The position numbers and the translations under genes are program-made. The notes below the pieces were generated by a model. It searched no databases and was not told where the DNA came from. It worked only from the letters and a program-made list of their open reading frames with translations. A stretch of DNA of 64,000 nucleotides from Parietichytrium sp. I65-24A (lineage: Eukaryota > Sar > Bigyra > Thraustochytrida > Thraustochytriidae). The stretch lies in NCBI GenBank assembly GCA_012862575.1, contig BLSF01000050.1, positions 62,001-126,000 of the forward strand, read 5' to 3'. The number at the start of each line of letters is the position of its first letter. Within the stretch, counting starts at the first letter, position 1. Below are positions 1 through 61,301 of this stretch, piece after piece.

Positions 1-3000
1 AAAGCCTCATTGAGAGCAACTCGACAGCAGCAAGTCCCAACCCGGAAGAATTCCTGCTAGAAATAATAGCAACAAAATTGCGAAATAGAAAATCCGCGCT
101 CTCCGCGCCCAAAGCCTCGTCGATAAAGTTGCAAACCTTCCCAATGTTTGAAAGCTCCTCCCGCTCGATTGAGACAGCCTTGGTAAGATGTATCATCGGC
201 ACCCTCGAATCCCGTATCCATTGATCAACGTCATCCATGCTTGCTGCTGCCCACTCGAAGGATGTAGCCTGCAGGCGATGCCAGCCCCCTCCACCGTGAA
301 ATGGAATCAAAGTCGGTAACTGAGTATCGGCAGTCTGGCGATCATCAGTATACGAAAGCGCAAAAGCTTTGATTGCCTCCAATTCGGCGTCAGTGCTGAA
401 TTGCCGAGTTTCGTCACCCACTCCTTTTAACATCCGCGAAGCCTTCAATTTTGGGCGACCCGCTCTTGAAGCGTACCGTGCGATAAGCTTCACCTTGTTC
501 CGAGGGAGGCGCAGACGCGGCTCAACAAACCGGTGCATGGCGACATAGTGGGACATGTCACGAAATAAGCTCGCATGCTTTGGGAGCTGCTCGCCGCTTC
601 GAAGATAAGTTGCCTCGTAAAAATGCAAACGGGAAGCAACTGCGTTGGGTTTGGAGGTTTGTAGAGAGGAGTTCGACAGCCTTGCAACCAAGGCGTGCTC
701 CATAGGAGAGAATGGAAGGTCGGTGCTCGCATAATTAAGTATATCCAGAGCAGAAGAATACGCGCTGTACTCAAGCTTGAGCAGGTACAGAGCCATCGCG
801 GCTGGGCGGCTCATAGGGAGGAAGAACTGCCGCGTGGGGTCAATTTGCGCCACGAAGTATCTCTGGTGCCGGAACTCATCCTTTGTTGTATTTTTCATTG
901 AAGCACCTTCCCCTCCTGGAGCAACAGCAAACAGAATATACTCCTCTTTCCAGGCGTTGGTAAGGGTCACGAATTGAGCGAGCCCTTCCGTAACCGGGAG
1001 CTCAAGTCGAGCAAACTCGCGATCAAGCGCAAAATCGATTCCAAGGTGCGGATTGTCAGCGAGGACTGTAAACCCGTCTTCTTGGACCAAGAGACGAAGT
1101 TCAAGGCTTGTTACCTCAATTTCTCTCAGTCTGGTTTCGCCAAGCGTCCTCCAAAACAATACAAAGCGAGCTTCTGCAAGCCTGCAGACCGATTTGATGA
1201 CGTTCTTTGGCGGACTTCGGTCCAGCTCAACATTCGCAATTGGTTTCCATATACATCCTGTTGGCACGTCAATGACAATATCATAAAATTGCAAAGGTGC
1301 TGTTCTTCCGCCTTTAAAGAACGGGGTACTTGCAACTATCGCATTTTCCTCCAGATCCAACCAAAATAATTCGTACTGATTGAGCAGCCCGGTCGGAAGA
1401 TAAGCACACAGCGCGTCACGCGGAATAAGATAGTACTGTTTGCCAGTAGATCTTGACTCAAATACGCCGGTCACAACGTTGGGCTGCTCCACCAGACTGC
1501 TGTGGTCTAAGGAGAAGTGCGAACAAGACTGGCGAGTAGTTGACTCGGGACGCACAATCTTATGCCCTTCGGGCGTGATTTGTAGGGCGTATATTTCGTC
1601 AACTTCCCCCACCGCGAATTTAACTCGCTCGCAATCCTTTGTGACCGGTTCAAACAGAGGGGAGGAATGCAAGCTGACCTGCAACCTATCTCGGTTCTCA
1701 TTGAGAAATTCCACAGAGCACACCACAGAGGGAGCAGACGTTACCAAAGTCTCGCTTGTACTAACATAGCATACCCCACCGTCCAAAGGACGTGAAGTGT
1801 CGATCCCGAGGCATTCGCCCACAATGCTGTAGCCGCGAAGCTGCGTTGGAACTGAGGACTGCGGCACTCGGCCAACTAAGGCCACGTTTCCAGTAAAAGA
1901 GTTGACTCGCATATCCTGGAAAGAGTAGTCAAAGCGGTCCAATTTCCATTCGCAAGACGATGGTAGTGGCCGGGCGATGCAGCGCTGCACAAGCTCATTT
2001 AAATCTGCGCTATCCAAGCTGCCAAAGTACATACAATTCCTCACCAACACACCATGAATGTGAAGCCTTACGCTTTTATCGGCGTACTCCTCACTTTGCA
2101 GTGATTGCAGACACCAGAGCAAAAGTTCAGTGCTATGCTCTCGTACGGTTGCTTGGTCAGCCTCCAAAAAGCACAGACAGCATCCCCAATATAAATTGGA
2201 AGCCTTGAAAAATTCAAGCAATTTTGTGCGAAGCAAAGTTTGTATTCTAAGGAGATCAGTCTCCCGAATAGCGACCGCGCTCTCTAACCTTCCCAAGATC
2301 AAAACTGTGTCTTTTAATGCCGCCAAGACAGTCCTGGGAACCTTGGTGGTCGACTTGCACACCTCCAAAATACTCTCAGCAAGGCTTGCAAGAAGCGTTA
2401 CCACCTGAGATCCCTGACGTGAAAGCTCAAACTCCAACAAGCTCGGTAACTCTCCTTCCACATAACATCTTGAGACAGGTTGCGGACAATCCAGGCTCTC
2501 GGCAGCCCGAAACTGTTTGTCCTGTATGCTGCAATGGCCCGGTTCGAGAAGCGCAGCGTTGAAGATGGTCCGAAGCTCTTCGTTGAAAAGCAACGTTGGT
2601 CGATCCTCTGCGACAAAAAAGCTGAGGAGAGCCGGTATCCGTACGAAGGGAACTGTTAAGAAAGTCGCAATTCGCTCCGACTCTGCTGGCCCAAGGTACT
2701 CCGAGAAAGTTGAAAGAGGAGAGGCGCAGAGGACATCGTGTTCGTCCATGGATGCTGCAAGTCGCCAAGTTCCCCCAAGCACGCATGCTTTCGGAGATGC
2801 ACGAGAAGCAAATTGTCTTGACTTGAAAGAGAATTCGTGGAAAAGATCTTTTCCGAATGCGCGCGCAAAGATTTCCAACTCGTCCTTTGCCCGAAAGCAT
2901 CTCCATCGAACTGGCCTTTCCACATCTAGCTCAAATTCGCTCCAGTCATCCTGTTCTTGATGGTCTGAAGGCGGAGAAAGGCACCCAAACTTGAACATCA

Positions 3001-5416
3001 CGGCGATATCGCGGACACTACTGAACAAGGCCAGGGTTTCGGAGCACATGGCCTTGGCGCTTTCGAAGAGTGAGTCCGTTGGTGCCCCTTCTACTGCCGC
3101 AGCGAGGCGGAGAACTGATGGAATTGCTTCTCCATCAAAATGCTTAGATTGAAGGGTGCTAAAGTCCCAAATATTTCGCTCGTCGTGGTCTGGTTTCTTC
3201 GCGTCTGCGAAAAAAAGAAGAAGCGATTTCCGCACAACCGCAAACGAAGGGCTGGTGCTTGAATAGGCAGTCGCATCGTGAAAGTCGACCCCGTTAAGAG
3301 CTTTGGCATCTGGCACCATTCCTTGGACCAGACCGCTTGCGCTAGAACCACCTTTTGGGCAGAGAAGAATAGCATTGGCGTACATGTAGAGGGCCCCGAG
3401 TGTGACGAGGAAATCCCCAAACTCAGTCCCACTGCGCGACAAGCTCGGCATTTCCTCCGAAGCTGCAATCCGAAGAAATGAATGCAAGTATAGAGCGGTG
3501 ATTTGCGTCAAGTGTCGCGCCGTCTCGTTTTGCACAATCACCGAAACCCACTCCTTACTTTCAAGCCACAGGTTTGGATCATGAGGAAGAAATCGAACGA
3601 CTGCGTTCTGTACAACGGCAACGATTGCAAAGTTGTGAATGCTGCCTCGAGCCGGAACTTGACTAAGGTTCAGGACAATTGCATGAAGCCCAGCCACCTT
3701 TTTGGACAAGATTGTGTCCGTGAATAAAGGATTATCGGGGCTGACGTTGATTGATGGTTCTCCGCGAGCCTCCTCCGCGGTCCCTTCGATAAGGCCGGCC
3801 GTATGTGCATATAGAGCAGACCCTTTTATAGCTATCGCGACTTCAGCAACCATGAACTCGTTATATGTCATTGCGGAGCCAATGTTTGTCTCTCGAGCTT
3901 CGTCCATAATCGCTTTTCTGTCCTCTTCGCAACGCGTCATCAGCTTCTCGACCAGCGCTTGTGCCTGCTCACGGTCGCTCATAAGGTGCGCCTTCTGTAC
4001 CGACTTTGCCACACGCGTAGCAATCACTTTGAGCTGCTCAGGGGACCTAGCTGAGGCCTCACTCGAACTTGTCACGGCTTCCGCCAGCTCCAGGCGCAGT
4101 GCTAATTTTACGCGTTTCCAATGTGATGCATCTAAACTTGCTCGGAGCCGCATTGCGACAAATAGAGCAGGCAACACGGACTGTGACGGCTGTCTTCCCG
4201 GTTTGGTCCACCACCAATTCTCATCTACCCACTTTCCAGAGTATTGCTCTGGGATGGCGACGTGCAGCGGTTTGCCACCTGCCAAAAAGGGCAGCAGCAC
4301 TTCATACAGCACCCGGGAGGTATTTTTTGCAGACGAGGAGTAACGAAGTTTTATGAGCATGGACGCGAATGTGGGGTCCAGGAGCCGAAGTCGAGATACA
4401 TACGGTATCAACAGTACCGGACAAGCCTTGCATTCGCCAGTGCGTGAGAATTTCTGTGGGTGATACTCCAGGTGATGCTTGCTGCACACATAAACTGCAT
4501 ATTGATTTTGGCGAGGCTCAATTACCAGAGCAAAGCTTCCAGACACATTTGCACCTTTGAAACCAAGAGGATATATCCCGTAGTCTTGGGAGCCTAAGGA
4601 CGTCACATGTCTCAAGAAGCACTCCACCTGAGCAACTACATCACCTTCCCTGTCCTCCATGAGTTGTAAAAATACTGCGGCCTTGCTCAGAGCCTGAAGC
4701 GCCGCTTGAGGAACCTTGTCTTCGAGTAATCCCCGCAAGGCAAGGATCTCTTTCACTTCTGGCTCAGATCCTAAGGTGACGAGCTCGAAAGATTCGAAAA
4801 ACATCGCATGATAGAGTCTTTCACAACTAGGGAGCTCCGTCTCGGTTGTGGATGGCTCTGAGTCTACTGCCAACGCCCCAAGCTCTTTGATTCCGTTAAC
4901 AAACTTGATGGACTCGAAGGCTGCTCCAAAGTCAACCCCCGTAGCATCCGTCATCTGTGCAAGAACCTTAGACTCTCCGTATCGGTCGACCAATTTGTTC
5001 ACCTGCGACGCCTCGCCTCGACCTGTGCCTTCAACTTCATCAAGGACCGTGGCCAACACAGTCTTCACCTCTTCGCGATGAGCATCAACACTGCCACCCC
5101 ACCCCATGTCCGTCGTTGCGGACAGCAATCTAGCGCGGCGACTTGCGTGAGGATCGGCCTTGTTTTGCACTACGATCTCCGGAAGATCTTGCATAGCCTG
5201 TGCGGTGAATCCTTCTCTGCGGTCCGCGTCCGAAACGTGCGCCGTCTCCGCAGACTGCACATTATTCCCGGTGCTTTTGGCATACCACGCTTTGAACTCC
5301 TCGATCGAAGCTGCATCACATCCGGAGAGCTGCATCTGAGTCAAGATCCCCGTCAGAGGCACGCCGGACCTGGCCATAAGGAAGAACCTCTTCTGCTGCT
5401 GCTGCTGCTGCGCCAT
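1..5416 (-). CDS. giant protein, N-terminal 1805 codons, runs off left edge; possible DUF3638-type family
   Basis: I see one uninterrupted frame on the minus strand from an ATG at 5416 to the window edge (1805 codons plus one base, no stop). Three in-frame stops (TAG TGA TAA) lie about 30 to 40 bases upstream of this ATG, so it is the first possible start in this exon. The N-terminus is MAQQQQQQKRFF, a six-Gln run followed by M-x3-GVPL-x3-L-x-QM-x3-G, which resembles the short segment of CCDC53/WASH subunit 3 also found in other protist proteins. No signal peptide or clear membrane span was seen. Far downstream are segments such as ALCAYLPTGLLNQYELFW (positions about 1450 to 1360) and QFFLPMSRPAAMALYLLKLE (about 850 to 775). 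These remind me of the very large DUF3638/DUF3645 proteins (annotated as putative ubiquitin hydrolases), but the diagnostic P-loop-like part would lie left of the window. The family call is therefore weak, while the reading frame is very strong. Confidence 0.9.
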   Translation of the reverse strand, partial: MAQQQQQQKRFFLMARSGVPLTGILTQMQLSGCDAASIEEFKAWYAKSTGNNVQSAETAHVSDADRREGFTAQAMQDLPEIVVQNKADPHASRRARLLSATTDMGWGGSVDAHREEVKTVLATVLDEVEGTGRGEASQVNKLVDRYGESKVLAQMTDATGVDFGAAFESIKFVNGIKELGALAVDSEPSTTETELPSCERLYHAMFFESFELVTLGSEPEVKEILALRGLLEDKVPQAALQALSKAAVFLQLMEDREGDVVAQVECFLRHVTSLGSQDYGIYPLGFKGANVSGSFALVIEPRQNQYAVYVCSKHHLEYHPQKFSRTGECKACPVLLIPYVSRLRLLDPTFASMLIKLRYSSSAKNTSRVLYEVLLPFLAGGKPLHVAIPEQYSGKWVDENWWWTKPGRQPSQSVLPALFVAMRLRASLDASHWKRVKLALRLELAEAVTSSSEASARSPEQLKVIATRVAKSVQKAHLMSDREQAQALVEKLMTRCEEDRKAIMDEARETNIGSAMTYNEFMVAEVAIAIKGSALYAHTAGLIEGTAEEARGEPSINVSPDNPLFTDTILSKKVAGLHAIVLNLSQVPARGSIHNFAIVAVVQNAVVRFLPHDPNLWLESKEWVSVIVQNETARHLTQITALYLHSFLRIAASEEMPSLSRSGTEFGDFLVTLGALYMYANAILLCPKGGSSASGLVQGMVPDAKALNGVDFHDATAYSSTSPSFAVVRKSLLLFFADAKKPDHDERNIWDFSTLQSKHFDGEAIPSVLRLAAAVEGAPTDSLFESAKAMCSETLALFSSVRDIAVMFKFGCLSPPSDHQEQDDWSEFELDVERPVRWRCFRAKDELEIFARAFGKDLFHEFSFKSRQFASRASPKACVLGGTWRLAASMDEHDVLCASPLSTFSEYLGPAESERIATFLTVPFVRIPALLSFFVAEDRPTLLFNEELRTIFNAALLEPGHCSIQDKQFRAAESLDCPQPVSRCYVEGELPSLLEFELSRQGSQVVTLLASLAESILEVCKSTTKVPRTVLAALKDTVLILGRLESAVAIRETDLLRIQTLLRTKLLEFFKASNLYWGCCLCFLEADQATVREHSTELLLWCLQSLQSEEYADKSVRLHIHGVLVRNCMYFGSLDSADLNELVQRCIARPLPSSCEWKLDRFDYSFQDMRVNSFTGNVALVGRVPQSSVPTQLRGYSIVGECLGIDTSRPLDGGVCYVSTSETLVTSAPSVVCSVEFLNENRDRLQVSLHSSPLFEPVTKDCERVKFAVGEVDEIYALQITPEGHKIVRPESTTRQSCSHFSLDHSSLVEQPNVVTGVFESRSTGKQYYLIPRDALCAYLPTGLLNQYELFWLDLEENAIVASTPFFKGGRTAPLQFYDIVIDVPTGCIWKPIANVELDRSPPKNVIKSVCRLAEARFVLFWRTLGETRLREIEVTSLELRLLVQEDGFTVLADNPHLGIDFALDREFARLELPVTEGLAQFVTLTNAWKEEYILFAVAPGGEGASMKNTTKDEFRHQRYFVAQIDPTRQFFLPMSRPAAMALYLLKLEYSAYSSALDILNYASTDLPFSPMEHALVARLSNSSLQTSKPNAVASRLHFYEATYLRSGEQLPKHASLFRDMSHYVAMHRFVEPRLRLPRNKVKLIARYASRAGRPKLKASRMLKGVGDETRQFSTDAELEAIKAFALSYTDDRQTADTQLPTLIPFHGGGGWHRLQATSFEWAAASMDDVDQWIRDSRVPMIHLTKAVSIEREELSNIGKVCNFIDEALGAESADFLFRNFVAIISSRNSSGLGLAAVELLSMRL

Positions 5417-7973: not shown

Positions 7974-9398
7974 TCAGGATTTTGAAGCACTCGGCCGTAC
8001 AGATACCATTTGAAGGCGCGGCGGTTTGCAGAATTTGAAGATCAGGGCAAGGCTCAGGATTGTCACAAACAGCAAGGTATTCATGACAATAGTGGTGATG
8101 ACATTCACCCCGAGCCCAAGAGCATCATCATCTCCAGCTACATTTTGAGGCGAGGCAGTTGGGTACAAGGTTTGGTTTGTGCTAATTGAGGTAGTTGGTG
8201 CTGCGGTTGGTTGGGGGGTAGGTGCCAAAGATTCTACAGAGCCATCTGTCGTCGTCGGTTGGCTAGTGTATTCCAGCTTGTCCACACTTGAAGCAAACAG
8301 AGTAAAGCCTGCTCCTTTCACAGTTCGGTCTGAAGAGAATTTGAGCAGGACGTTAGATGCTTGGTATGTCTGTGCGGTCGAGGCCATTTGACCTGTAAAA
8401 CTCCCAAGCAATGCCCCCACATCGTCGCCGTCCACATCATGTACGTACAGGTAGTCAAACCCGTCCTCAAGATCCAAGGACTCGATATCGATGCGAATGC
8501 TCTCGCCTTGGAGCAACCAGCACTTTCTCAAGTAACTTGTGTAGTCGTCCGTTCCCAAGGTAATATTTGTTGCCGTGGACTTGCTGAGCTCCACGGCTAT
8601 GTACTGATCACACCCGAATGGCTCACTCGTTCCGTGCTTTTCGATAACACTATTGATCCACTCGATTTGGTATGGGATCCCTGTATACGCACCAAATGAA
8701 TTGGGTCTGGCACAGCCGATCCCGTGACTTGTAATGCCGACTTGAACAGATGCTACACCATCCGTGTAATACAATGGCCCGCCTGAGTCGCCCTGGCATG
8801 TATCCACGCCGCCCTCAACGTAGCCCGCACATATTGTGGTGTTCACCTCCGCAGAATCACACTGCTGCACCGGCACGGTTGCAATGTAGAGCACATTAGT
8901 CGACACTGTTGTATTCTCGTGCAGGTTTCCCCATCCTATGATCGTCAAGTTTGTCCCAATCGCAGTATAGTTGGTATCAAGCCCCGCCAAAGCCATAAAA
9001 TTATTATTCCCCCGCTCAAAGCTTCGTCTCGTCCGAAGAAGCATGATATCATTTTCTTCGCTGGTTTTGTTGTAATTTGGATGAACGTACACCTTCAGTA
9101 TGTCTTCCCGCTCTGTGGAGCTATCCGAGTTTTCCTCGGACAGCTCAAGAGTTCCTCGAACCGCTGTTGTGTCCGTATTCCATGGCTCGCAATGAGCTGC
9201 GCTCATAACCCATCCCGGGGCAATCACTGTTCCTGCGCAAAAGTGCTCGGAATTAGACTGCAGCGACACCATCCAGTCATAAGTCTCTGTCGCCAGTAGC
9301 CCGCCCACAATTCTTGTGCTCGCCTTGGCCGTTGCCACAGAACCCGTCAAGAGCACCGCCGTCAAGGCGATGCTGCAACCAAAGTGTTCGCGTCGCAT
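7974..9398 (-). CDS. trypsin-like serine protease with CUB domain and C-terminal membrane anchor
   Basis: 474 residues. An N-terminal hydrophobic signal peptide (about 7-27) is followed by the S1 activation motif RIVGG (29-33). Catalytic residues are His69 (AAHC), Asp117 (NDIMLL) and Ser205 (CQGDSGGP). Asp199, six residues before the serine, is the S1-pocket Asp that gives trypsin-like cleavage after Arg/Lys. A CUB-like domain follows (about 262-375; FDYLYVHD and YQASNVLLKFSSD are typical), then a Pro/Thr-rich linker and one membrane span (about 436-458) with a short basic tail. It is therefore probably a type I cell-surface protease, possibly processed by cleavage before Ile30. Intronless. 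Neighbours give no pathway clue; a second, differently built S1 protease lies at 16811-18214. Confidence 0.93.
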   Translation of the reverse strand: MRREHFGCSIALTAVLLTGSVATAKASTRIVGGLLATETYDWMVSLQSNSEHFCAGTVIAPGWVMSAAHCEPWNTDTTAVRGTLELSEENSDSSTEREDILKVYVHPNYNKTSEENDIMLLRTRRSFERGNNNFMALAGLDTNYTAIGTNLTIIGWGNLHENTTVSTNVLYIATVPVQQCDSAEVNTTICAGYVEGGVDTCQGDSGGPLYYTDGVASVQVGITSHGIGCARPNSFGAYTGIPYQIEWINSVIEKHGTSEPFGCDQYIAVELSKSTATNITLGTDDYTSYLRKCWLLQGESIRIDIESLDLEDGFDYLYVHDVDGDDVGALLGSFTGQMASTAQTYQASNVLLKFSSDRTVKGAGFTLFASSVDKLEYTSQPTTTDGSVESLAPTPQPTAAPTTSISTNQTLYPTASPQNVAGDDDALGLGVNVITTIVMNTLLFVTILSLALIFKFCKPPRLQMVSVRPSASKS

Positions 9399-16810: not shown

Positions 16811-18214
16811 TCAAAGGTCCTCCACATTCCACACAGTCCATGAAGTTCTGCTCTTGACCAAACACTTGTTGGAACTCAGGTAGCAGTAGCCATTGACGGC
16901 ATCCAAGTTGAAGGACTTGCAACCCTCCTTGAAGCACTCACGGGCGCAATCATTGGCATTCTCAATTTGAAGCTTGATGAAGTTACCCTTTGTGGCCCTC
17001 TGCCTGCACACGCGGCTCTCCTTTTTGACTGCCTCAAGCATGTCATCAAGGACGTACATAACGTGCGAGCTTGAGGAGCGCTGCGTACATTCCGAGTAAA
17101 GAGCGCATGATCCAGAACTTTCGATGAAGGTGAAGAGTTTGCAATCAGCATTAAGGAAGCATGCCTTGCTACACTCCGAAACAGTCTCGACGGTGAGAGA
17201 CTCCAGAGTGCTACCCTTGCAACGAATTCCAACGTTTGCCACGGACTGGAATGCAGTTGTTGGCGAAGGGGTTGGGGACACAGTTGGCATCTTTGTTGGG
17301 CTCACTGTTGGCAACTCGGTTGGGGCCTTGGTTGGAAAGCTTGTGGGCTCCTTCGTTGGGTTCTTTGTTGGCGCCTCCGTGGCGCTCGAGCTCGAATCAA
17401 TCACGACACCCTCAGATATTTTCAGGTTGGATTCTCCCACGTAAGCTGCGATCTTGCCAATAAAGCTTGACATGCGAACGTAGAGAACTGGGGTACCGTC
17501 ACATCCATATGTTCCGCGGGAGACAATACCAAGCTGGACATAGCCAGTCGTAGTCTCCATCAGAAGCGGGCCGCCGCTATCTCCGGTGCACGGGCTTTCA
17601 CCGTCCGTACCAAGAACACAAATGTGTGCATCGGTAACATCGCTGATGTACTTTTGGCACTCCTCGGTGCTGAGAACCTGCACCGTCGCTTGTCTCAGGG
17701 CTTTGTCCGAAGAGTACACGTCACCCTCGATCTTTCCAAAGCCGAGAGTGACCGCCGAGAAGCCTGGCTCCGCAGCGAGTGACTCGTCGGCGTTCAAACT
17801 AACAACAGGCAAGTCGATTGGAGATGCCAATTTAATAAGAGCAACGTCAGTGTACAGTGCATTTCTGCTCGCGGGATGGATCACGTCCTTGACAGCAACA
17901 TAGTGATCCGCTCCTGATGGATTACGAACATAAGCTCCAAACCCGACTTGAGTGATCTGAGTCATGCAGTGCCCTGCGGTGATAGCCCAGCTCGGGTGGA
18001 TCAGAGTTGCAGCGCAAGCAAAGTATTTGTTCCCGTTGAGCTCAAGATACAGTGACAGAATGAATGGGTATGGGTCTTTGCTGGCGTCCACGACTGTGCC
18101 TTTGTAGATCAACTCGCGGCCATCTGCGTGTGGGGACACCAGCTGAGGCGCCTCCCGCGCTCCGCATGTACATGCTAAGAGCGCCAAACTAACAATTGTG
18201 GATAACCTAAACAT
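16811..18214 (-). CDS. secreted S1 serine protease with Pro-Thr linker and two PAN/Apple-like modules
   Basis: 467 residues from ATG 18214 (MFRLSTIVSLALLACTCG), chosen because it opens with a clean signal peptide; an in-frame ATG at 18331 would bury it. Catalytic residues are His82 (TAGHC), Asp123 (TDVALIKL) and Ser213 (CTGDSGGP). The residue six before the serine is Ser207, not Asp, which predicts chymotrypsin/elastase-like rather than trypsin-like specificity. The usual IVGG start is replaced by LIYKGTVVD, so activation may differ. Residues about 281-320 form a Pro-Thr-rich spacer with x-PT-x repeats. Two cysteine-rich PAN/Apple-like modules follow (ECSKACFLNADCKLFTF and DCARECFKEGCKSFNL), probably binding carbohydrate or protein. 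No membrane anchor, so likely secreted. Confidence 0.92.
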   Translation of the reverse strand: MFRLSTIVSLALLACTCGAREAPQLVSPHADGRELIYKGTVVDASKDPYPFILSLYLELNGNKYFACAATLIHPSWAITAGHCMTQITQVGFGAYVRNPSGADHYVAVKDVIHPASRNALYTDVALIKLASPIDLPVVSLNADESLAAEPGFSAVTLGFGKIEGDVYSSDKALRQATVQVLSTEECQKYISDVTDAHICVLGTDGESPCTGDSGGPLLMETTTGYVQLGIVSRGTYGCDGTPVLYVRMSSFIGKIAAYVGESNLKISEGVVIDSSSSATEAPTKNPTKEPTSFPTKAPTELPTVSPTKMPTVSPTPSPTTAFQSVANVGIRCKGSTLESLTVETVSECSKACFLNADCKLFTFIESSGSCALYSECTQRSSSSHVMYVLDDMLEAVKKESRVCRQRATKGNFIKLQIENANDCARECFKEGCKSFNLDAVNGYCYLSSNKCLVKSRTSWTVWNVEDL

Positions 18215-21200
18215 CTTGTGATATTGTGAAGACCTTGCGAATGCAGGTGAAGGTGGATTGGCCGAGTTTGGGTTTTGGTTGCCGGAAAATTGTACTGTGC
18301 GAAGCCTGGCCCAACTTGGGAGTACCAGCAATGATGTGCACTCTAGAGTTTCCCAAGAGCGGATGGTGTACTGCTGGCTGGATCTTTGCCGAGCAGAACA
18401 GGGCCACCTAAATGCGTCGCTTAATAAATACTCTCTGACGGTGCTGGCTTGTTTGAGCTTAGTAGGTGTGAGATGACGTGAGCTGGTGTGACAAAATGGC
18501 CATCCTAGGTTTTCCCAACCATTCTAGCGTCTCCAACTCCATACCCTCACCAGTAGAACATCGTTGGGGACTGGCTAAAATCAGGTCGAACTCAAGCACT
18601 TTTAAAATCCTGTTCTGTTTCTGCCATTCAACACAACATCCTTGTGTGAACACTTTCATGAACAAGAAGTGGAGGGAGGGGACAGACTGACAGTGAATTT
18701 GGTGAGCATAGTACTGGTATTGAGTACCAAATTTACTGCGCACGAGGCAGTTTCGCTTCGCTCATCGCCAACTGAAAACAACCAATCTTGTACGTGGATA
18801 TAGGCTGTAGTGCTACACCATTTGAAAAAAGGACATCAGATTTCAAGATTTCGAGTCACCTCAAGAACCCAAAACTCCTTCATACGCGCTTCACTACATA
18901 CTATAAGGTGCTGTACCCGGCAGTGCCGCTGCCGCAGCAGTTTTGGTAACGGAACGAACACTTTCTCACCGTGTGTATCCACTGACTGACGTAGCGGTGC
19001 CAGTACTAGTAAATGGCGATTTTGTATGGGCGGCACAAAAATCTCTGCACAGCAATGAGTGGTCAGTGGCCTAGTGCCGCACTTAACGATGCATTATACC
19101 GTGAACAGATGAGTCAGATTCCAAGTCGAAAACGCTCAAGAGGTGCATTTCTTCACTTTTTGCATCGTTGGTTGACTGAATATTGATCTGGTCACTTCGC
19201 CGCGATCCGATAGAATTAGGACTATCGCTCCATACTGTGTTTACACTTGGCTGAATTCCACCGTTCCTGCTCTTTCGAATACGAAACGACAATCCGAGTC
19301 ACGATTCACACGGTTTCTGTCAAAAGCACAAGGGTTTGACTCAGAATCGAGGTGGTGTCGCACATCTTTGGCACGAGTCACGACTTCTCAATGAAAGACT
19401 CTTCTGATTGCAGTCATGACGAAGGAAATCCATGGCGTTGTGGGCCTTTCGAACGATTGATGAACTGTGTCGCATCGTCACTTCTACCTGAATTTGAGCT
19501 GACTGGCAAAACCAGAAAACGGCACAGGAAGAATGCAGTGTTTTTGTCACGCAGATTTTTCTTCTTTCGCCGCTAAAGCTTGGTGGAGCGAAACGAGGTC
19601 AGAAGGTTACGAGTGAGAGCGGAACAGACCCTTTGGAATCTTTGGAAGGCCAAGTTGATGGATCGATTGAGACCAGCTGATGTGTGAGGTGGCGGACTGC
19701 ATTCGAGCCCTGCAAAATTACTAGGAAACGTTTGCAGCCGGTCTTCTTGCTATAGCAAAAAAATTATTGACTGTGTTCTGTTTCCTCTTGCCAACAGTGT
19801 ATCATCACCAAAGCCGTCTTTGGGTCGGCCGCATATCCGCTCAAGCAAGGCTACAAATAATGATACAAAATTCTGCAAGCACTCCACCTCAATCAACAAA
19901 GGGTGCACATCCATCCTTTCAGGCCTCCACATTGGATATCCTCCCGAGTCTCCCGAGTCCCAGTCTCATTGACTCGTGAGCTCTCGACTAAAACCATGAA
20001 AACGTCTAAATCAGATTTCTCAAACGAATAGCTTTAACCATAAGTGACGCTTATGTGACCCTTTTGGTCCCTTCGCTAATGTCTGGCGATAGCAACAGAG
20101 TTCATAGCGACAAAGGAAGGACCTAGGAGTATCAAACTATGCCACGTGTGAGTAGCTAATCGACGTGAATCAGTGGTTGTGTCGACTTTTGAGCTGGCTC
20201 GATGGCCGCAATCTTGACATCAGAGTCTCGGATTTCGACGGTGGAGAAGCTCTTGGCAAGTACCACCTTTGAATTAACATTCGAGTAGACTGGTCTGGTG
20301 CTTCATGGAATACATAAATTGGTTCAAACTGCGGCCTGAGCCCTCTTCACGGTGATGGCGCTGGTGCTTTAGTCGTGTAGAACGACACCGTGACTCACAA
20401 GCAAAAGAATAGGCACACACTGCTAACACCGATCGTCGTGAGTCGTGACTTTCTTTACTGGGAGTAATTGCACCCTTTTCGAAGTGCTCTCATTTTGAAT
20501 TACCGGTACTCAGTACCGCCACAATCGCTGCTGCCTTTTAGACACACGTGCGAAACAGGGAGTGGTCAGAGCGGCCTTTCTTTGATGCGGCGCATTCCAT
20601 TTGGTCTTGCAGTGGGAAAATTTCTGAATTCTGCATATAGTATCGTACTGCACAACGCAAGTCGAGATTCGTATTTCCGAGGTGGCGAATGAAATGCAGG
20701 CAGAGGACATTCGCCATAGTCTCACTGCACTAAAGCTGCTCACTCCACTAGTAAACATGACGCACAAGGGCCAAAAAGATGTACTTTACTAAAATGTTTC
20801 TGAGATTTCGCATCCTCGTTCATGGATTTCGGGTTCATGAACTTGATTCACGAATAAAGGAAGCGCTTCCCAGATATTACACTGAGAGCCTATGGTGTTA
20901 CTCGAGTACCATCAACATTCTCGTGTTATCCGAGTTGGCAGCTGGTCTCATTTGTCTCATTGGGGTTTGGTGGTACCGATACGTCACTCTAATCATGAAC
21001 GAACCGAGAGTGCATACGTGGCAACTACATGGAGCTGCAGCCGCTATACTTTCTCTTTCCCGTTCGAATTCTATTCTTCCGTGAGCGCGTACCTTTGCGT
21101 CACTTTGAGTGGCAGTTCCAGTCGGAATCGTGGCGCACAATGCATGCACCCCATTGTTTGCCTTTTTCTTTCAGCGTCAATTGACTGTGTGAGAAACCTC

Positions 21201-52377: not shown

Positions 52378-55134
52378 CTAGTCCGTATCGGGAGCACTGC
52401 TCCGACCGTCGGCGAGACGAAGCACCTCTGCTGTGCTTTGTGCGAAGATAGGTCGAGAAAAGTCCCAGACTCGGACAGTGCCATCGGCTGACCCTGAAGC
52501 CAAGCGGCTGTTTGTCATGAAGAACAAGGATTTTACCCAATTTCGGTGGCCTACGAGAGTCCGGATGCACGACTTATTTTGCGGATTCCAGATTTTGATG
52601 GAGTTGTCACGAGACGCCGAGGCAAGCACCGGGTGGGCGCCTGGCTGTGGGATGCTGGCCAAACTCTCGATAACATCCGAATGGCCGATCAAGGTTCCCG
52701 CAGCCTTACCGATAGACTTGCCAGAGCACATCCACAACCGGATGGTTCGATCTGCAGATGCTGTAGCAAGGTACCTCCCGCACTGCTTGATGGACCGGAT
52801 TGAGCCCTTGTGACCCTTCAAAGTCTTGATCTCCGCCCAATCCGCAGCAGGGTCCCAAATTTTGACAGTGGAGTCCTGTGACCCAGATGCAAGCAAAGGT
52901 TTGTTGCTCTCGGGATCGACAACTAAGCACACGCCATACACATGGTCCGAGTGACCAGTTAAAACCTTGACGCATTCTCCGCTATCGTAATCCCAAACTC
53001 TCAAAGTGTTGTCAGCCGCGCCGGACACAAGTCTCCCAGCACACTCTGCTATGGCAACGACCCAGCCCTCGTGTCCGAGAAGAACGCGCTCACGCTTCCA
53101 TGTCTTCGGCTCCCAAATCATCACCGTGCCATCAAAAGAGCACGAGGCAAGTTTTCCGTTGGAGAGACACACCAGGCCGAAGACCCGGTCACTATGGAGG
53201 TCCAACACCAGTGGCTGCAAGCCATTTCCGTCTTCCCGATCGAAGGTAGCAATGCAGTTGTTTTTCAAATCCCAAATACGTATGGTTTGGTCGCGTGAGC
53301 CGGAGGCAAGCATCCCGTTTTTCATCTCAGTTACCGCGTAAACGTATCCGCTATGACCTTCCAGAGTCGCTAGGCAACTAGCGCCTTCGACTTCGCAGCC
53401 GCCTGCGGTATTGTAGCGACGCAAATTTGGGATAACCTCAATTTCCACGACATCTTCGTCATCTTCGGCGTCGTCGTCGTCAACGTCACAATTGTTTACC
53501 ATCTTGGAGTCTTTTTGCATTGTCTTATCAACCTTTTCCTGGCGCTTGGTGCGCTTCGCGTTTTCCTTCTCCACGGCGGCGAGCCAAAGCTCGTAAAGAA
53601 CGCCATTCAGCTCTTTGAGCTCTTCCGTAAGCACCTTGATCTCATCGTTCGACAGATGGGCAAAACGAACCGACCCATCGGCAAGCATGTTTGCAAAGGC
53701 TTCAACACGATTCTCGTCATCGTCGTCATCATCATCATCATCATCGTCGTCGTCATCATCGTCTTCTTCGTCGTCGTCTTCCTCCTCATCGTCGCCAAGT
53801 TCATCTTCATCGTCGCCGTCCTCCATTTCATCCTCTGCCATCTCGCCTTCGCCAGCCATGGAAGGCGCCACGTCATTTGCCTTGTCGTTGTTATCCTGGG
53901 TGGTCTTAACAGATGGCTCTGCCTTCTCCTCCGATTCCAACTTTTCGTCCTCGCATTCAGCACCTTCATCGTCCTCCTCGCCCGACTCGTTGTCATCGTC
54001 TGCGTCGTCAAGGTCGTTCTTGCTCGAATTACTGTTTGGGGTCAAGTCCTCGAGCTTGAGCAACCTCGACTCCGGGGGCCTGTTGTATGCAGCCCAGCGA
54101 TACAATGCGCGAACGACAGAAGCTTCGCTGTCGCACTTGAGGTTGTCCCGAGAGAGCAAGCGCTGCACGGCATCGCATGCAAGCTCGCCCCATTCCACGT
54201 CATCTGTGACCTCCATAAAGTGATCGCTCAGATACTCATCCGCCATCTCCTCGAGGGTGCCGCAATTAAACAAGTTACCCAACGCGCAAATCGACAAAGC
54301 GTTGCATGGTTGCAATTTCCCAAGGAGGTAGTTTACGCACAAGTCGATGCCGCCTTGAAGCCCGAGAAAGCGACACGCGCGCAGCGTTTCCGAGATCGTC
54401 ACATCACAGAGTCGAAGCGAGCCCGTGTAGAGAAAGTTTATTGCCCGAACAAAAGCGCATCCCTCAATCACCGAGATGTCCAGGGAAAAAATGGTTAAGC
54501 CATCCCTCAATAGTTTCGCGGAACCCCCAAAATTCTCCAGATTCGGTAGGTTGAACGAAGCGCCATCCGGGAGCACCCGGGGTGGCATCGCGGTCGCCGG
54601 TGCGTCCGCAGAAAGAAGCGGAGTCGCGCGTCCTGAGTTATCATCCGTCGACGACTTGGACGAAGTGGTCTTGCCCTCGCCGTCGCCAGACGCAATGTCA
54701 GTTTCCACGTCGTTGTCCGCCCGCTTGCGTTTCCTGCCTTCAGCCGACCCTTCCACCACGACGAGCCTCTTGCGCGCCATCTGCTGCAGATGGGCCAGGA
54801 GCGGGGACAGCGCCGCTACAACGCCGTGCATGCGCACCAACGCCAGCCCATCCTCGTAGTAGGTCACTGGCAGCCCTTTGAACTCTTCCACGAAGTCTTT
54901 CTTGGACGCGCTGCACCGCACGAACACCCCCACATCACACTGAAACGCCTGCTTCCACCTGTTCAGCAGCGACTTTCGCAGGTCCGCGTCGTGATGCTCG
55001 CAATGTTCCACCGTGCTCTTCACCACGAACGCACCGCCGCCCTTCTCCAAACCCTGTCCCACCGGCGAACCTAGCGGCTGCTCTATCACCAGGCTATTGA
55101 ACCTCTGTCTCTTCGGGATCCCGTGGAACAGCAT
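52378..55134 (-). CDS. BTB/BACK protein with long acidic tract and C-terminal WD40 propeller
   Basis: 918 residues, intronless. An N-terminal region with no recognised family is followed by a basic RKRKRAD stretch (possible nuclear signal). A BTB-like segment ends in AINFLYTGSLRL (about 227-238), and a BACK-like helical block follows (about 240-320; LFNCGTLEEMADEYLSDHF). An acidic tract with about 17 consecutive Asp near 448-476 is encoded by a GAY trinucleotide run (about 53705-53790). The C-terminus is seven WD40 repeats (about 583-905), each closing in the style SGSRDQTIRIWDL or SGSADGTVRVWDF, enough for one complete propeller. BTB-BACK proteins often recruit substrates to CUL3 ubiquitin ligases, and the propeller would be the substrate reader; both roles are inference. 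The BTB portion lacks a fully convincing dimer start. Confidence 0.85.
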   Translation of the reverse strand: MLFHGIPKRQRFNSLVIEQPLGSPVGQGLEKGGGAFVVKSTVEHCEHHDADLRKSLLNRWKQAFQCDVGVFVRCSASKKDFVEEFKGLPVTYYEDGLALVRMHGVVAALSPLLAHLQQMARKRLVVVEGSAEGRKRKRADNDVETDIASGDGEGKTTSSKSSTDDNSGRATPLLSADAPATAMPPRVLPDGASFNLPNLENFGGSAKLLRDGLTIFSLDISVIEGCAFVRAINFLYTGSLRLCDVTISETLRACRFLGLQGGIDLCVNYLLGKLQPCNALSICALGNLFNCGTLEEMADEYLSDHFMEVTDDVEWGELACDAVQRLLSRDNLKCDSEASVVRALYRWAAYNRPPESRLLKLEDLTPNSNSSKNDLDDADDDNESGEEDDEGAECEDEKLESEEKAEPSVKTTQDNNDKANDVAPSMAGEGEMAEDEMEDGDDEDELGDDEEEDDDEEDDDDDDDDDDDDDDDDENRVEAFANMLADGSVRFAHLSNDEIKVLTEELKELNGVLYELWLAAVEKENAKRTKRQEKVDKTMQKDSKMVNNCDVDDDDAEDDEDVVEIEVIPNLRRYNTAGGCEVEGASCLATLEGHSGYVYAVTEMKNGMLASGSRDQTIRIWDLKNNCIATFDREDGNGLQPLVLDLHSDRVFGLVCLSNGKLASCSFDGTVMIWEPKTWKRERVLLGHEGWVVAIAECAGRLVSGAADNTLRVWDYDSGECVKVLTGHSDHVYGVCLVVDPESNKPLLASGSQDSTVKIWDPAADWAEIKTLKGHKGSIRSIKQCGRYLATASADRTIRLWMCSGKSIGKAAGTLIGHSDVIESLASIPQPGAHPVLASASRDNSIKIWNPQNKSCIRTLVGHRNWVKSLFFMTNSRLASGSADGTVRVWDFSRPIFAQSTAEVLRLADGRSSAPDTD

Positions 55135-56265: not shown

Positions 56266-58157
56266 TCTGAGAGCGACAGGGTGTAGTGTATTGGGTGTCA
56301 GAAATATGAGATGACGGAGATGACTGAAAGCTTTTCGTTCAAGTGACTTACTTACATCAGAATCCCGGACTCCATGCATCCCCAATGGACATGCACAGTG
56401 ATTGCCAGTGATGAGATTTCAAAGGATACTAAGGATACACTGAACACTGAGTGGTCAGTAAATGTTTAAAAGTTTGGAGTAGGCCCGTCTAGCTACTAGC
56501 CAAAGAAAGAAACCTCCGTCCAGCTTTGCTAACCCCCTTCAGGTCTAAACTATGGAAGTGCTTTTCTAAGGCGAGGAGTAGAAAATGCATAAGCCAGCTC
56601 TGTTGAGAAAGCGAATGAGGCAGCAAAGCAAACGCAAAAACTTGATGTGTTTTCATGTTTTATTTTTCTACGAAATTATTTTTACAAAATTAAATGCAAA
56701 AAGAGCGCGAAAGGGACTGGGGAAATGGCGCTTTCAGGTTGTGGTGGCACAATGTACGTTTTCGACAAGCCAAGGTGTGCCCGGCCAGCAGGCTTACTCG
56801 ACGTGCCATTTCCTTCACCTGAAGTTGAGGCAACGAACGCTTCCTCGGGCCTGGCTGTCTTAACTGAACTGACTGTGAATTCTTTTCACAATTTGTAGAC
56901 ATTTTGTGCACCGCCTGTGATGCGCCTTTTGAAGATTCACAGATTTGCACAGTCACTAAAATATGGATGCGAAGCTCAAAGTTGGAAGCTTATGCCCGGA
57001 CGGTGGAACCCGATCTCCATTCTAGGATGCACGTCTTGGAAGGGGCATGTATTTTTTAGGTGTTACTGCCACTGATTTGTTCCCCAAAGAAGACACCCCA
57101 CTACGCAGGGGTTACAGCTGCTCACTGTCGTTCGCTTCCGCTGCAAAGAAGGAGAGATGCCAGAGTGAAAGCGTAACACATAGTAGTAACACAGCATAAG
57201 CCCAAAAAAAGAGCCAAAGCAAATACACACTTCGCGGGAACTAGTGTTTTAAGATGCCACATATGCCACAGATGCCACCACGTACTTTTACTAATATCGA
57301 ACACATGAAAGGTGTGAGTGAGGTGAGAACAACTTGACAGCAATTCCACATTCCCCAGACCACACTCAGTTCAGTTCAGTTCAGGAAGAAGCGGGGTCTT
57401 CAACAAGGGGCAGTGGTCGCACCGAGTGGGGCAGGACAGGCCCTCGCGAAGACAGAAGATGAGAAAGGGATGCTATGTCGTGGAGAGGATCGATGGTGTA
57501 TCATATCGGTTTTACAAAGCGTCATCGATTGAAGACGCGCTCCTCGCCATGGAGAGAGGTGAGAAGAATGTTTTCTTGAAGTATGTTTTGGGCTCCTTGG
57601 CGTGAGAAGACCTTTGTGATTTCATGCTGACGCTTCTTGATGCTGATGCGGTGGACTCTATGACGGTCGTTTGAAGACTTTATAATGGGGAAAAACTTGC
57701 AATTTCGAAGCTGGCTTTAGTCCTGAAAGACAACAAGTTCTTAAGGCGCTTGAAGTACGTCGAGGGCATTTGTGGCTGTCGCAGTCTGAGTCTAAAGGTC
57801 TTGTGCGAAGCAAGCGTTACTTCCGCGCAGCTTCTGCGTCTCCTTGACGCCACAATCTTAATTGTCAACTAACGTTTTACTTCACAGACTCTTCGTTCGA
57901 GCTCTCAACGGAGAGGAGAAGCTTCTCTTCAGTGCTCTTGAGGCAAACAAAACGCTCACCTCCTTAGAGTAAGTCTGAGCTCGTCTTGTGTAGATCGATA
58001 TCTGACGTTCTTCAAGCGCAACTTTTTTTCGGATTTACACTGTTCATGAAAGAATGCGGAAAGCCGATAATCGAGGCTCTGCGAACGCCACTAACCAGCC
58101 CCGTTTCAACATGCTTTCTCTACAGCATTTCTGGCACCAATTTACACCATGCATTGG
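56266..58157. repeat. direct duplication, left copy (1892 bp)
   Basis: Matches 58159-60050 base for base with a fixed offset of 1893 and no net insertion or deletion. I count roughly 25 substitutions, most in the right half. It stops exactly at the single N at 58158. Contains exons 1-3 and the beginning of exon 4 of the LRR gene. Confidence 0.97.
57459..58157 (+). CDS. LRR gene, 5' part (exons 1-4 partial), duplicate of the copy at 59352
   Basis: Exon 1 57459-57580 (40 codons plus two bases), exon 2 57677-57754, exon 3 57888-57968, exon 4 from 58126 until the N at 58158. The reading frame stays intact in all of these. Exon 2 here has donor GTACGT where the right copy has GTAAGT; both are usable. 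Because the copy is cut precisely by the assembly gap, I treat it as an alternative allele or unmerged contig end rather than a separate truncated gene. Confidence 0.6.
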
Positions 58158-58158
58158 N
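58158..58158. other. single ambiguous base (N), probable contig join
   Basis: The only N in the window. It separates the two copies of the 1892-bp duplication exactly. Confidence 0.97.
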
Positions 58159-60050
58159 TCTGTGAGCGACAGGGTGTAGTGTATTGGGTGTCAGAAATAT
58201 GAGATGACGGAGATGACTGAAAGCTTTTCGTTCAAGTGACTTACTTACATCAGAATCCCGGACTCCATGCATCCCCAATGGACATGCACAGTGATTGCCA
58301 GTGATGAGATTTCAAAGGATACTAAGGATACACTGAACACTGAGTGGTCAGTAAATGTTTAAAAGTTTGGAGTAGGCCCGTCTAGCTACTAGCCAAAGAA
58401 AGAAACCTCCGTCCAGCTTTGCTAACCCCCTTCAGGTCTAAACTATGGAAGTGCTTTTCTAAGGCGAGGAGTAGAAAATGCATAAGCCAGCTCTGTTGAG
58501 AAAGCGAATGAGGCAGCAAAGCAAACGCAAAAACTTGATGTGTTTTCATGTTTTATTTTTCTACGAAATTATTTTTACAAAATTAAATGCAAAAAGAGCG
58601 CGAAAGGGACTGGGGAAATGGCGCTTTCAGGTTGTGGTGGCACAATGTACGTTTTCGACAAGCCAAGGTGTGCCCGGCCAGCAGGCTTACTCGACGTGCC
58701 ATTTCCTTCACCTGAAGTTGAGGCAACGAACGCTTCCTCGGGCCTGGCTGTCTTAACTGAACTGACTGTGAATTCTTTTCACAATTTGTAGACATTTTGT
58801 GCACCGCCTGTGATGCGCCTTTTGAAGATTCACAGATTTGCACAGTCACTAAAATATGGATGCGAAGCTCAAAGTTGGAAGCTTATGCCCGGACGGTGGG
58901 ACCCGATCTTCATTCTAGGGTGCACGTTTTGGAAGGGGCATGTATTTTTTAGGTGTTACTGCCACTGATTTGTTCCCCAAAGAAGACACCCCACTACGCA
59001 GGGGTTACAGCTGCTCACTGTCGTTCGCTTCCGCTGCAAAGAAGGAGAGATGCCAGAGTGAAAGCGTAACACATAGTAGTAACACAGCATAAGCCCAAAA
59101 AAAGAGCCAAAGCAAATACACACTTCGCGGGAACTAGTGTTTTAAGATGCCACATATGCCACAGATGCCACCACGTACTTTTACTAATATCGAACACATG
59201 AAAGGTGTGAGTGAGGTGAGAACAACTTGACAGCAATTCCACATTCCCCAGACCACACTCAGTTCAGTTCAGTTCAGGAAGAAGCGGGGTCTTCAACAAG
59301 GGGCAGTGGTCGCACCGAGTGGGGCAGGACAGGCCCTCGCGAAGACAGAAGATGAGAAAGGGATGCTATGTCGTGGAGAGGATCGATGGTGTATCATATC
59401 GGTTTTACAAAGCGTCATCGATTGAAGACGCGCTCCTCGCCATGGAGAGAGGTGAGAAGAATGTTTTCTTGAAGTATGTTTTGGGCTCCTTGGCGTGAGA
59501 AGACCTTTGTGATTTCATGCTGACGCTTCTTGATGCTGATGCGGTGGACTCTATGACGGTCGTTTGAAGACTTTATAATGGGGAAAAACTTGCGATTTCG
59601 AAGCTGGCTTTAGTCCTGAAAGACAACAAGTTCTTGAGGCGCTTGAAGTAAGTCGAGGGCATTTGTGGCTGTCGCAGTCTGAGTCTAAAGGTCTTGTGCG
59701 AAGCTAGCGTTGCTTCCGCACAGCTTCCGCATCTCCTTGACACCACAGTTTTAATTGTCAACTAACGTTTTACTTCACAGACTCTTCGTTCGAGCTCTCA
59801 ACGGAGAGGAGAAGCTTCTTTTCAGTGCTCTTGAGGCAAACAAAACGCTCACCTCCTTAGAGTAAGTCTGAGCTCGTCTCGTGTTGTTCGATATCTGACG
59901 TTCTTCAAGCGCAACTTTTTTTCGGATTTATACTGTTCATGAAAGAATGCGGAAAGCCGATAGTCGAGGCTCTGCGAACGCCACTAACCAGCCCCGTTTC
60001 AACATGCTTTCTCAACAGCATTTCCGGCACCAATTTACACCATGCATTGG
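58159..60050. repeat. direct duplication, right copy (1892 bp)
   Basis: Begins at the first base after the N and continues without break into the unique 3' part of the LRR gene. See the left copy for comparison. Confidence 0.97.
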
Positions 60051-61301
60051 CTATCGGTGAGGTACTGACGGTGAACCCGACTCTAGTGACTCTCGAGTAA
60101 GTATCTTGGGTAGAGCTGGCACGCACCTCTTCATCCTCAACATTCCCAGCTTTGAGCAGGGTCTCAGGCTTGGCAAGCTGCTCGGGCTCACGCAGTGGCA
60201 AGCGCAGCGCTCGCAGTTGGTTTGGTTGGTCAGTCGGTCTGACATAGTTGCCTAACTTCCTGGCAGTCTTTCACATTCTTGGTTTGCTGAATTGCAAGAT
60301 GTGAAATCTTTAGCGGAAGCACTTGGTTCCAGAAATACAAAGCTGGAAGTCCTCCAGTAGGTCACTGCGAGATACCTGTTTCACCTACGGCATTGCCAAG
60401 AAGAAGTAACTGACAACGTGATCAACAAGTCTTTCCAAATCGCTTATTCCTATCAAAGGAGTAGCCCTTTTGGCCAAGGCCGTTCGATTTAACGCTGTGC
60501 TTTCTAATTTAGAGTACGTTTGCTGTTCTGCATTTATATCTCCTGAAGGAGTCGATTTCGAGGAGTCTCACAGGTGTTGCAGCTTGAGTTCGTGTAGCAT
60601 TGGTGATAAAGGGGTATCTTTACTCGCAAATTCGCTGGAGCAGAACTGCGCACTGACTGCACTTACGTAGGTTAGAGCGATTGCGTGCTCTATGATGAAG
60701 TCCGTGTTGAAAGCAGGACAACAAACTGAACTTTTCTATTGCCGTGATGGTAGCCTCGAGGGGAATAACATTGGCCTCAAAACTACTTTGGTTCAAAAAA
60801 TTCCACAGCGCGTTGGGGTCATTTCCGTGAGTCGTGCGTGCTAGGCGGCTTGTTCAGCACCATGGAGTCGAAGCAACTGACTTGTGAGAGTAGTCTGATT
60901 TCAACATACGACGGAGCTAAAGCGCTCGCCAAGTGCCTCGAAAAGAATTCGACGTTAACTTATCTTGAGTACGTTCTAGAAGGCAAGCGACCTGATCTTC
61001 CGAACACGAGACGACTTACTCATTTTACACCTTTACAGTCTTGAGTGGAACCAGATTGACGACCGCCGAATGGTCGCACTTGCCGAAGCGCTGAAGGTGA
61101 ACAAAGCGTTGACGTTTCTCAAGTAAGTTGATGCTGACACTCTTTTTGAAATGCAAGAGCGAGAGACTGACTTCTTTTCTTCTCTGATTCATTTTTATTT
61201 TTGAACGGAATAGCCTAAAGTCAAACCGGTTTAAAGAACAGGGGTGCAAACACCTCGCCGAGGCTCTCCGGGTGAACAAGACCTTGTCAGTACAGTTGTA
61301 G
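59352..61301 (+). CDS. leucine-rich repeat protein (ribonuclease-inhibitor-like repeats), 11 exons, about one repeat per exon
   Basis: Spliced model: 59352-59473, 59570-59647, 59781-59861, 60019-60096, 60267-60356, 60430-60513, 60583-60666, 60754-60826, 60889-60968, 61039-61122, 61214-61301. Total 942 bases, in frame, 313 residues. Introns are 62-170 bases with GT...AG ends. Most internal exons are 78-90 bases and encode one 26-30-residue LRR of RI type, e.g. LSSCSIGDKGVSLLANSL and LEWNQIDDRRMVALAEAL. Introns fall after the first two bases of the D/E/K/N/H codon that follows the L-x-x-L motif (phase 2). Exons 8 and 9 are degenerate and joined in phase 0, so that junction is the least certain. 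No NB-ARC, NACHT or membrane segment is seen; the 40-residue N-terminus (MRKGCYVVERIDGVSYRFYK) is unrecognised. Likely a cytosolic protein-binding scaffold; partner unknown. Confidence 0.8.

What the first reader, a model, noticed from the sequence alone, without database searches (positions are those of the whole stretch)
59352..61301. Hidden 11-exon LRR gene built as one exon per leucine-rich repeat
No long open frame marks this gene, but conserved phase-2 junctions after an L-x-x-L motif let eleven exons be joined into 942 in-frame bases. Exon size (78-90 bases) equals repeat size, so repeats could be gained or lost by exon duplication or skipping without changing frame. The other genes here have 0-3 introns, so the structure stands out. 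One-repeat-per-exon LRRs are known in vertebrate RI/NLR genes; in a microbial eukaryote this would suggest either exon shuffling or a variable recognition family.
Basis: partly seen in the sequence, partly recalled or inferred. Interest (0 to 1): 0.75.

Follow-up and report, generated by a model that had tools for sequence, protein, structure and literature searches.

The report
Diverged member of exon-per-repeat LRR family
The gene is real in outline, and it most likely belongs to a large family in this microbe's genome whose receptor-like genes are built from short interchangeable exons, each coding one leucine-rich repeat, with variation concentrated where such proteins usually touch their targets.

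Summary
The eleven-exon gene at 59352-61301 is there: 942 nt, 313 aa, ribonuclease-inhibitor-type LRRs. One correction: 9 of 10 introns are phase 2; intron 8 is phase 0. Independent support: a partial copy 1893 bp upstream differs at 4 of 313 exon bases, all silent third positions, against 15 of 386 intron bases.

It is not a one-off. An exon-end pattern of one-repeat-per-exon LRRs matches 521 times in this genome, its reversed control 0. In 18 fetched array loci, 192 and 193 of 198 repeat cores have AG and GT exactly where an 84-nt phase-2 exon needs them. Arrays start with a cap exon that the window gene shares; one fetched tail carries a protein kinase, another ROC-COR. Residue variation concentrates on target-facing positions.

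Window gene: probably an old, diverged, tail-less member, perhaps decaying; by overall sequence its best matches are intron-poor LRR genes. The architecture is known in Tetrahymena (90-bp exons) and brown algal ROCO genes (72-bp): a new variant of a known kind. Expression, splicing and species are unknown.

The parts
59352..59473 (+). exon 1: cap (N-terminal) exon, ends phase 2
   Evidence: cap HMM match 19.4 bits
59570..59647 (+). exon 2, LRR, 78 nt, phase 2/2
59781..59861 (+). exon 3, LRR, 81 nt, phase 2/2
60019..60096 (+). exon 4, LRR, 78 nt, phase 2/2
60267..60356 (+). exon 5, LRR, 90 nt, phase 2/2
60430..60513 (+). exon 6, LRR, 84 nt, phase 2/2
60583..60666 (+). exon 7, LRR, 84 nt, phase 2/2
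60754..60826 (+). exon 8, degenerate LRR, 73 nt, starts phase 2, ends phase 0
   Evidence: not matched by the strict motif
60889..60968 (+). exon 9, LRR, 80 nt, starts phase 0, ends phase 2
   Evidence: not matched by the strict motif
61039..61122 (+). exon 10, LRR, 84 nt, phase 2/2
   Evidence: donor kept in the contig 60 relic
61214..61301 (+). exon 11, last LRR, ends in a stop codon; the splice donor present in the contig 60 relic is missing here
56266..58157 (+). tandem duplicate of 58159-60050 (1868 of 1892 bases identical): 5' flank, exons 1-3 and the first 32 nt of exon 4
58158..58158 (.). single N exactly at the junction of the two copies: assembly joint

Best explanation
The gene is an old, diverged, tail-less member of a large family in this genome whose genes consist of a cap exon, a run of exons that each code one ribonuclease-inhibitor-type LRR between phase-2 introns, and, in some members, an effector tail (coiled-coil plus protein kinase, or ROC-COR). 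In the young members the LRR exons are 84 nt and their introns are alike, so repeats can be gained, lost or exchanged by unequal crossing-over and gene conversion without breaking the frame. Shown: gene model, cap similarity, exon geometry, array abundance, tails at the loci scanned, exon variation concentrated at xxLxLxx positions, and exons that differ between units whose introns are identical. Inferred: that the variable positions form a target-binding concave face, that they are kept diverse by selection, that the proteins are intracellular recognition receptors signalling through kinase or ROCO tails, and that the window gene, having no tail, acts at most as a binding or decoy protein.
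For: Model. Cap: an HMM of 17 distinct caps built without the window gene scores its cap at 19.4 bits, E 8.8e-5 in a set of 2157 sequences; best of 2000 shuffles 12.3 bits. Same junction L-NN|N-L as in the arrays. Family: 521 exon-end matches against 0 for the control; 786 candidates for a 28-aa unit, 150 scored and listed, on 40 contigs by my count; AG in 192 and GT in 193 of 198 anchored cores, both in 187; clean cap with phase-2 donor in 15 of 18 array loci, a degenerate one in a 16th. Tails: Pkinase 1.2e-25 in L036; Roc 6.3e-19 and COR-A 2.8e-14 in L055; six Roc matches lie beside arrays. Variation: a priori xxLxLxx codons differ at 0.51 per site against 0.10 (positions 1+2) and 0.17 (position 3) in the rest of the exon, for 191 unit pairs with 5-10% intron divergence; the same four codons are the most variable in both halves of the loci. 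Shuffling: 3 of the 7 unit pairs with no intron mismatch differ at 16, 11 and 12 of 84 exon bases; the other 4 are identical throughout.
Against: By whole-protein similarity the window gene's best matches outside its own locus are intron-poor LRR genes (C50:282347, E 1.3e-21, 39%); the array loci score far weaker. It lacks the array consensus, its introns do not resemble theirs by eye, and only 3 of its 9 internal exons are 84 nt. Its cap is not among the 64 matches of the cap-plus-tail search at E up to 10. The caps were gathered with a motif and a consensus to which the window cap contributed, a mild circularity. Apparent synonymous differences are high at the variable codons too (pS 0.70 against 0.27 in the framework), so selection is not cleanly separated from saturation or local mutation. 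No expression data.
Confidence: 0.6

Rival explanations
1. The window gene is a decaying relic of the family: transcribed weakly or not at all, without function today.
For: Exon 8 is degenerate and of length 3n+1, with a phase switch at intron 8; the donor after exon 11 that the contig 60 relic keeps is gone and a stop follows; no effector tail; the upstream copy is cut within exon 4.
Against: All 4 exon differences between the two copies are silent and introns differ three times as often, which points to constraint until recently; the other junctions are intact and the frame is open over 942 nt.
Confidence: 0.4
2. An unrelated RI-like LRR gene, for instance a cytoskeletal or axonemal LRR protein, whose introns happen to fall at repeat boundaries; its likeness to the arrays is convergence.
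For: Best genome matches are intron-poor LRR genes; the PDB matches include dynein regulatory complex and other axonemal LRR proteins beside ribonuclease inhibitor.
Against: Shared cap with phase-2 donor and identical junction position within the repeat; all 39 listed LRR_6 matches elsewhere lie in open frames of 169-1548 aa, so exon-per-repeat is not the general LRR gene style here.
Confidence: 0.2
3. The exon chain is a chance assembly of splice-like sites.
Against: 0 matches in 500 shuffles and none elsewhere in the window beyond the duplicate; silent-only exon differences; conserved sites in the contig 60 relic.
Confidence: 0.01

Closest known systems
Tetrahymena 90-bp-exon LRR gene arrays (PMC6564038; abstract and passages seen)
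   Same: Tandem LRR exons of one fixed length, almost all between phase-2 introns, many loci, signs of repeated expansion and exon shuffling.
   Different: 90 bp there, 84 bp here; the words positive selection, hypervariable, diversifying and ROCO do not occur in that paper's text; the cap exon and ROC-COR tails are not described in the passages I saw. 50% GC and frames read with the standard stops argue against this genome being Tetrahymena (inference).
Brown algal LRR-ROCO genes (PMC11378527; abstract, sections 11 and 15 seen; Zambounis et al. 2012 known to me only as cited there)
   Same: One LRR per exon, phase 2, exon shuffling, positively selected sites on the concave face, ROC-COR tail as in L055.
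   Different: 72-bp exons of another LRR type; here 84-bp RI-type repeats, also with kinase tails, in a genome without a match to light-harvesting proteins.
Vertebrate ribonuclease inhibitor and NLR LRR domains (PMC6642158, passages seen)
   Same: RI-type repeats, modular frame-preserving LRR exons that permit alternative splicing.
   Different: No NACHT domain in the window protein; microbial eukaryote.

Membership tests
RI-type (LRR_6) leucine-rich repeat proteins | Repeats matching the LRR_6 profile | tested here: met
   Pfam 2.4e-16 against cut-off 23.4 bits, 58.9 bits; porcine RI 1dfj 1.6e-15
84-nt-exon LRR array family of this genome | Cap exon with phase-2 donor | tested here: met
   19.4 bits, E 8.8e-5, but not found by the genome search
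84-nt-exon LRR array family of this genome | LRR exons between phase-2 introns at L-NN|N-L | tested here: met
   9 of 10 introns
84-nt-exon LRR array family of this genome | Exon length exactly 84 nt and the consensus GASAIGRALEKNTALT | tested here: not met
   3 of 9 internal exons are 84 nt; consensus absent. Hence 'diverged relative', not core member
Brown algal-type LRR-ROCO | ROC-COR domain | tested here: not met
   Window protein shows LRR matches only; met by array locus L055
Brown algal-type LRR-ROCO | 72-bp LRR exons | tested here: not met
   73-90 nt in the window gene, 84 nt in arrays
Tetrahymena 90-bp LRR arrays | 90-bp exons | tested here: not met
Tetrahymena 90-bp LRR arrays | Phase-2 introns between LRR exons | tested here: met
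   9 of 10; both sites placed for phase 2 in 187 of 198 array cores
NLR | NACHT or NB-ARC domain | tested here: not met
Variable recognition receptors | Ligand binding and a role in recognition | not testable with these tools
   Only the sequence signature was seen

The most novel reading that the evidence does not exclude
This heterotrophic microbial eukaryote keeps a germline library of many hundreds of interchangeable one-repeat LRR exons, reassorted independently of their introns, whose target-facing codons are diversified close to saturation while frame and introns stay alike. It would be a third, separately evolved exon-shuffled LRR receptor system, feeding both kinase and ROCO outputs, possibly with a local mechanism that targets the variable codons.
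Probability: 0.2. Interest if true: 0.88.

Novelty: new variant of a known kind. Interest (0 to 1): 0.62.

Why it matters
Exon-per-repeat LRR arrays under phase-2 introns have been described in Tetrahymena and in brown algae. A further case with another exact exon length, its own cap exon, two kinds of effector tail and variation focused on the presumed binding face would show that shufflable recognition repertoires arise repeatedly in microbial eukaryotes, and would give a compact (42.5 Mb) genome in which to measure how such arrays turn over and whether splicing adds diversity.

Tried and rejected
Species: the 18S family search gave no usable answer, the 5.8S family found nothing, an exact small-subunit rRNA motif found nothing. 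The PfaD model gave 4 matches, the best 30.3 bits against a cut-off of 449; no light-harvesting match. I leave the organism as an unidentified, apparently non-photosynthetic eukaryote.

A first exon-end pattern was mis-spaced and gave 5 matches against 9 in its control; the corrected one gave 521 against 0, of which the first 100 places were listed and a few of those look isolated.

I first compared variability at codons picked from the same data, which is circular; others (positions set beforehand; split halves) replace it. Comparing exons with introns is confounded because exons reassort against introns, so the framework of the same exon is the better yardstick; there pN 0.62 at codons 2, 3, 26 exceeds framework pS 0.27, but pS at those codons is 0.70 as well. 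Same-residue pairs use the same codon in 0.52 of cases there, 0.80 in the framework, 0.31 expected for random codon choice. So selection, age and local mutation are not separated.

The 1893-bp duplicate as a real gene duplication: doubtful. A single N sits at its junction, and 5 of 11 distinct single-N places in the loci fetched have the sequence right of the N also present shortly before it. Unmerged overlap or haplotype copies are likelier.

Structure prediction was not run. Literature searches; none listed a paper on 84-bp LRR exon arrays, but the library lacks most subscription journals.

Full report
1. The observation. The window is part of contig 50 of a 42.5-Mb eukaryotic assembly in 172 contigs. 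Nine introns are phase 2; intron 8 is phase 0, between exons of 73 and 80 nt. The protein matches Pfam LRR_6 (2.4e-16) and, in the PDB, ribonuclease inhibitor, NLR and axonemal LRR proteins (65 distinct sequences at E up to 0.001, 60 shown).

2. Is it more than chance? A strict motif of a phase-2 LRR exon, fitted to this gene, finds 7 of its 11 exons and 2 in the duplicate, none elsewhere in the window, and none in 500 shuffles. The upstream duplicate is a better witness: over exons 1-3 and 32 nt of exon 4 the two copies differ at 4 of 313 bases, all silent third positions, while the three introns differ at 15 of 386 (0 of 96, 9 of 133, 6 of 157) and the 5' flank at 5 of 1193. The uneven spread and the small numbers make this supportive rather than conclusive (p = 0.037).

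3. The duplicate. 56266-58157 repeats 58159-60050 with 1868 of 1892 identities, and a single N stands exactly between them. Of 11 distinct single-N places in the fetched loci, 5 show the same sign of a local repeat across the N. I read it as an unmerged overlap or two haplotypes set in tandem.

4. The rest of the genome. LRR_6 finds 39 listed matches, all in open frames of 169-1548 aa, so ordinary LRR genes here are intron-poor; only 150 of 372 candidates were scored. Searching with the window protein gave 133 matches. The best outside the locus are intron-poor genes, but weaker ones with stops inside led to loci with tandem repeats of the type IGDEGASAIGRALEKNTALTTL. There each repeat is one exon, mostly 84 nt, after AG and before GTACGT or a variant of it, with introns of about 100 nt (median 102 for 135 units). 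A few exons differ in length, such as an 81-nt pair in L036 and a 99-nt one in L039.

5. Geometry without assuming splice sites. Anchoring on the repeat core alone in 18 loci, 192 of 198 cores have AG at -30 and 193 have GT at +3; 187 have both. These 18 loci were picked because they held the family; not all array loci were fetched.

6. Number. The exon-end pattern has 521 matches (285 and 236 by strand) against 0 and 0 for the control. A 28-aa unit finds 786 candidates, 150 scored; by my count these lie on 40 contigs, and all but one are in open frames under 90 aa. A query of cap plus tail gives 64 matches at E up to 10: by my count 43 to the cap part (17 of them at E up to 0.001) and 21 to the tail part. 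Several lie within a few hundred bases of a contig end, so the assembly probably breaks in arrays and counts are low.

7. Architecture. Fifteen of 18 loci have a clean cap exon ending in a phase-2 donor, one a degenerate cap without ATG, and in two (L041, L042) none was found. The window cap matches the HMM of 17 caps at 19.4 bits, the best shuffle reaching 12.3. Caveat: the caps were collected partly with a motif and consensus that the window cap had informed. After the array, L036 runs into a 987-aa frame with a protein kinase (1.2e-25); the cut-off L034 tail had no Pfam match. L055 runs into ROC-COR. Roc matches also lie beside arrays on C4, C35, C47, C75 and C107; these were not read further. 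Several loci have no long tail frame in the DNA fetched.

8. Variation. Among 182 distinct units the most variable codons are 2, 3, 5 and 26 (16-20 residue kinds each), with the junction residue also variable by base. In the scheme LxxLxLxxN (recalled) these are mostly the exposed positions around the beta strand; the brown algal study places its four selected sites on the concave face. With positions fixed beforehand (codons 25, 26, 2, 3), 191 pairs with 5-10% intron divergence differ at 0.51 per site there, 0.10 and 0.17 in the framework. Halves of the loci agree on the same four codons. Within loci (981 pairs) pN is 0.62 at codons 2, 3, 26 and pS in the framework 0.27; pS at the variable codons is 0.70, and codon identity for equal residues is intermediate. 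So the diversity is old or locally fast; selection is likely but not proved.

9. Shuffling. Of seven unit pairs with no intron mismatch, four are identical throughout (three of them in segments duplicated around a single N) and three differ at 11-16 of 84 exon bases. Exons and introns therefore have partly separate histories, as exchange between arrays would produce.

10. The window gene's place. For membership: cap, junction position, phase. Against: overall similarity, loss of consensus, exon lengths, absence from the cap search. A relic on contig 60 (about 2967-3933, minus strand) aligns to the 3' part of the gene (score 338, best of 50 shuffles 198), with exon 11 as an 84-nt phase-2 exon and an intact donor that the window copy lacks. 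I take the window gene for an old member that lost what followed, and give even-handed odds to its being in decay.

11. Known or new. One LRR per phase-2 exon is known in Tetrahymena and brown algal ROCO genes, and modular LRR exons in human NLRs. The 84-nt length, the cap exon and the paired kinase and ROCO tails make this a new variant of that kind.

Noticed in passing
window 56266-60050: Tandem 1893-bp duplicate with a single N at the joint; probably an assembly joint.
   Followed up: yes
L035, L036, L059, L044 (C99): Further single-N joints with locally repeated sequence across them (5 of 11 distinct places including the window's).
   Followed up: partly
L032, contig 60, about 2967-3933, minus strand: Relic of a paralog of the window gene's 3' end with intact splice sites around exon 11.
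   Followed up: yes
L036:2389-5349: Array tail of 987 aa: coiled-coil-like stretch, protein kinase, then a cysteine-rich stretch that looks to me like RING/IBR-type zinc fingers (by eye; no Pfam match).
   Followed up: partly
L055, contig 12: LRR array running into ROC-COR: an LRR-ROCO gene with 84-nt exons.
   Followed up: partly
contigs 15, 22, 41, 53, 54, 110: Cap matches within about 0.2-1.7 kb of a contig end: either subtelomeric arrays or assembly breaks in arrays.
   Followed up: no
window 7974-9398 (-) and 16811-18331 (-): Trypsin-like proteases with a CUB and a PAN domain, respectively, uncommon pairings for a unicellular eukaryote in my recollection.
   Followed up: no
window 52378-55134 (-): BACK domain joined to WD40 repeats in one long frame.
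   Followed up: no
L044, contig 99: Several intron-poor RI-type LRR genes in tandem.
   Followed up: no
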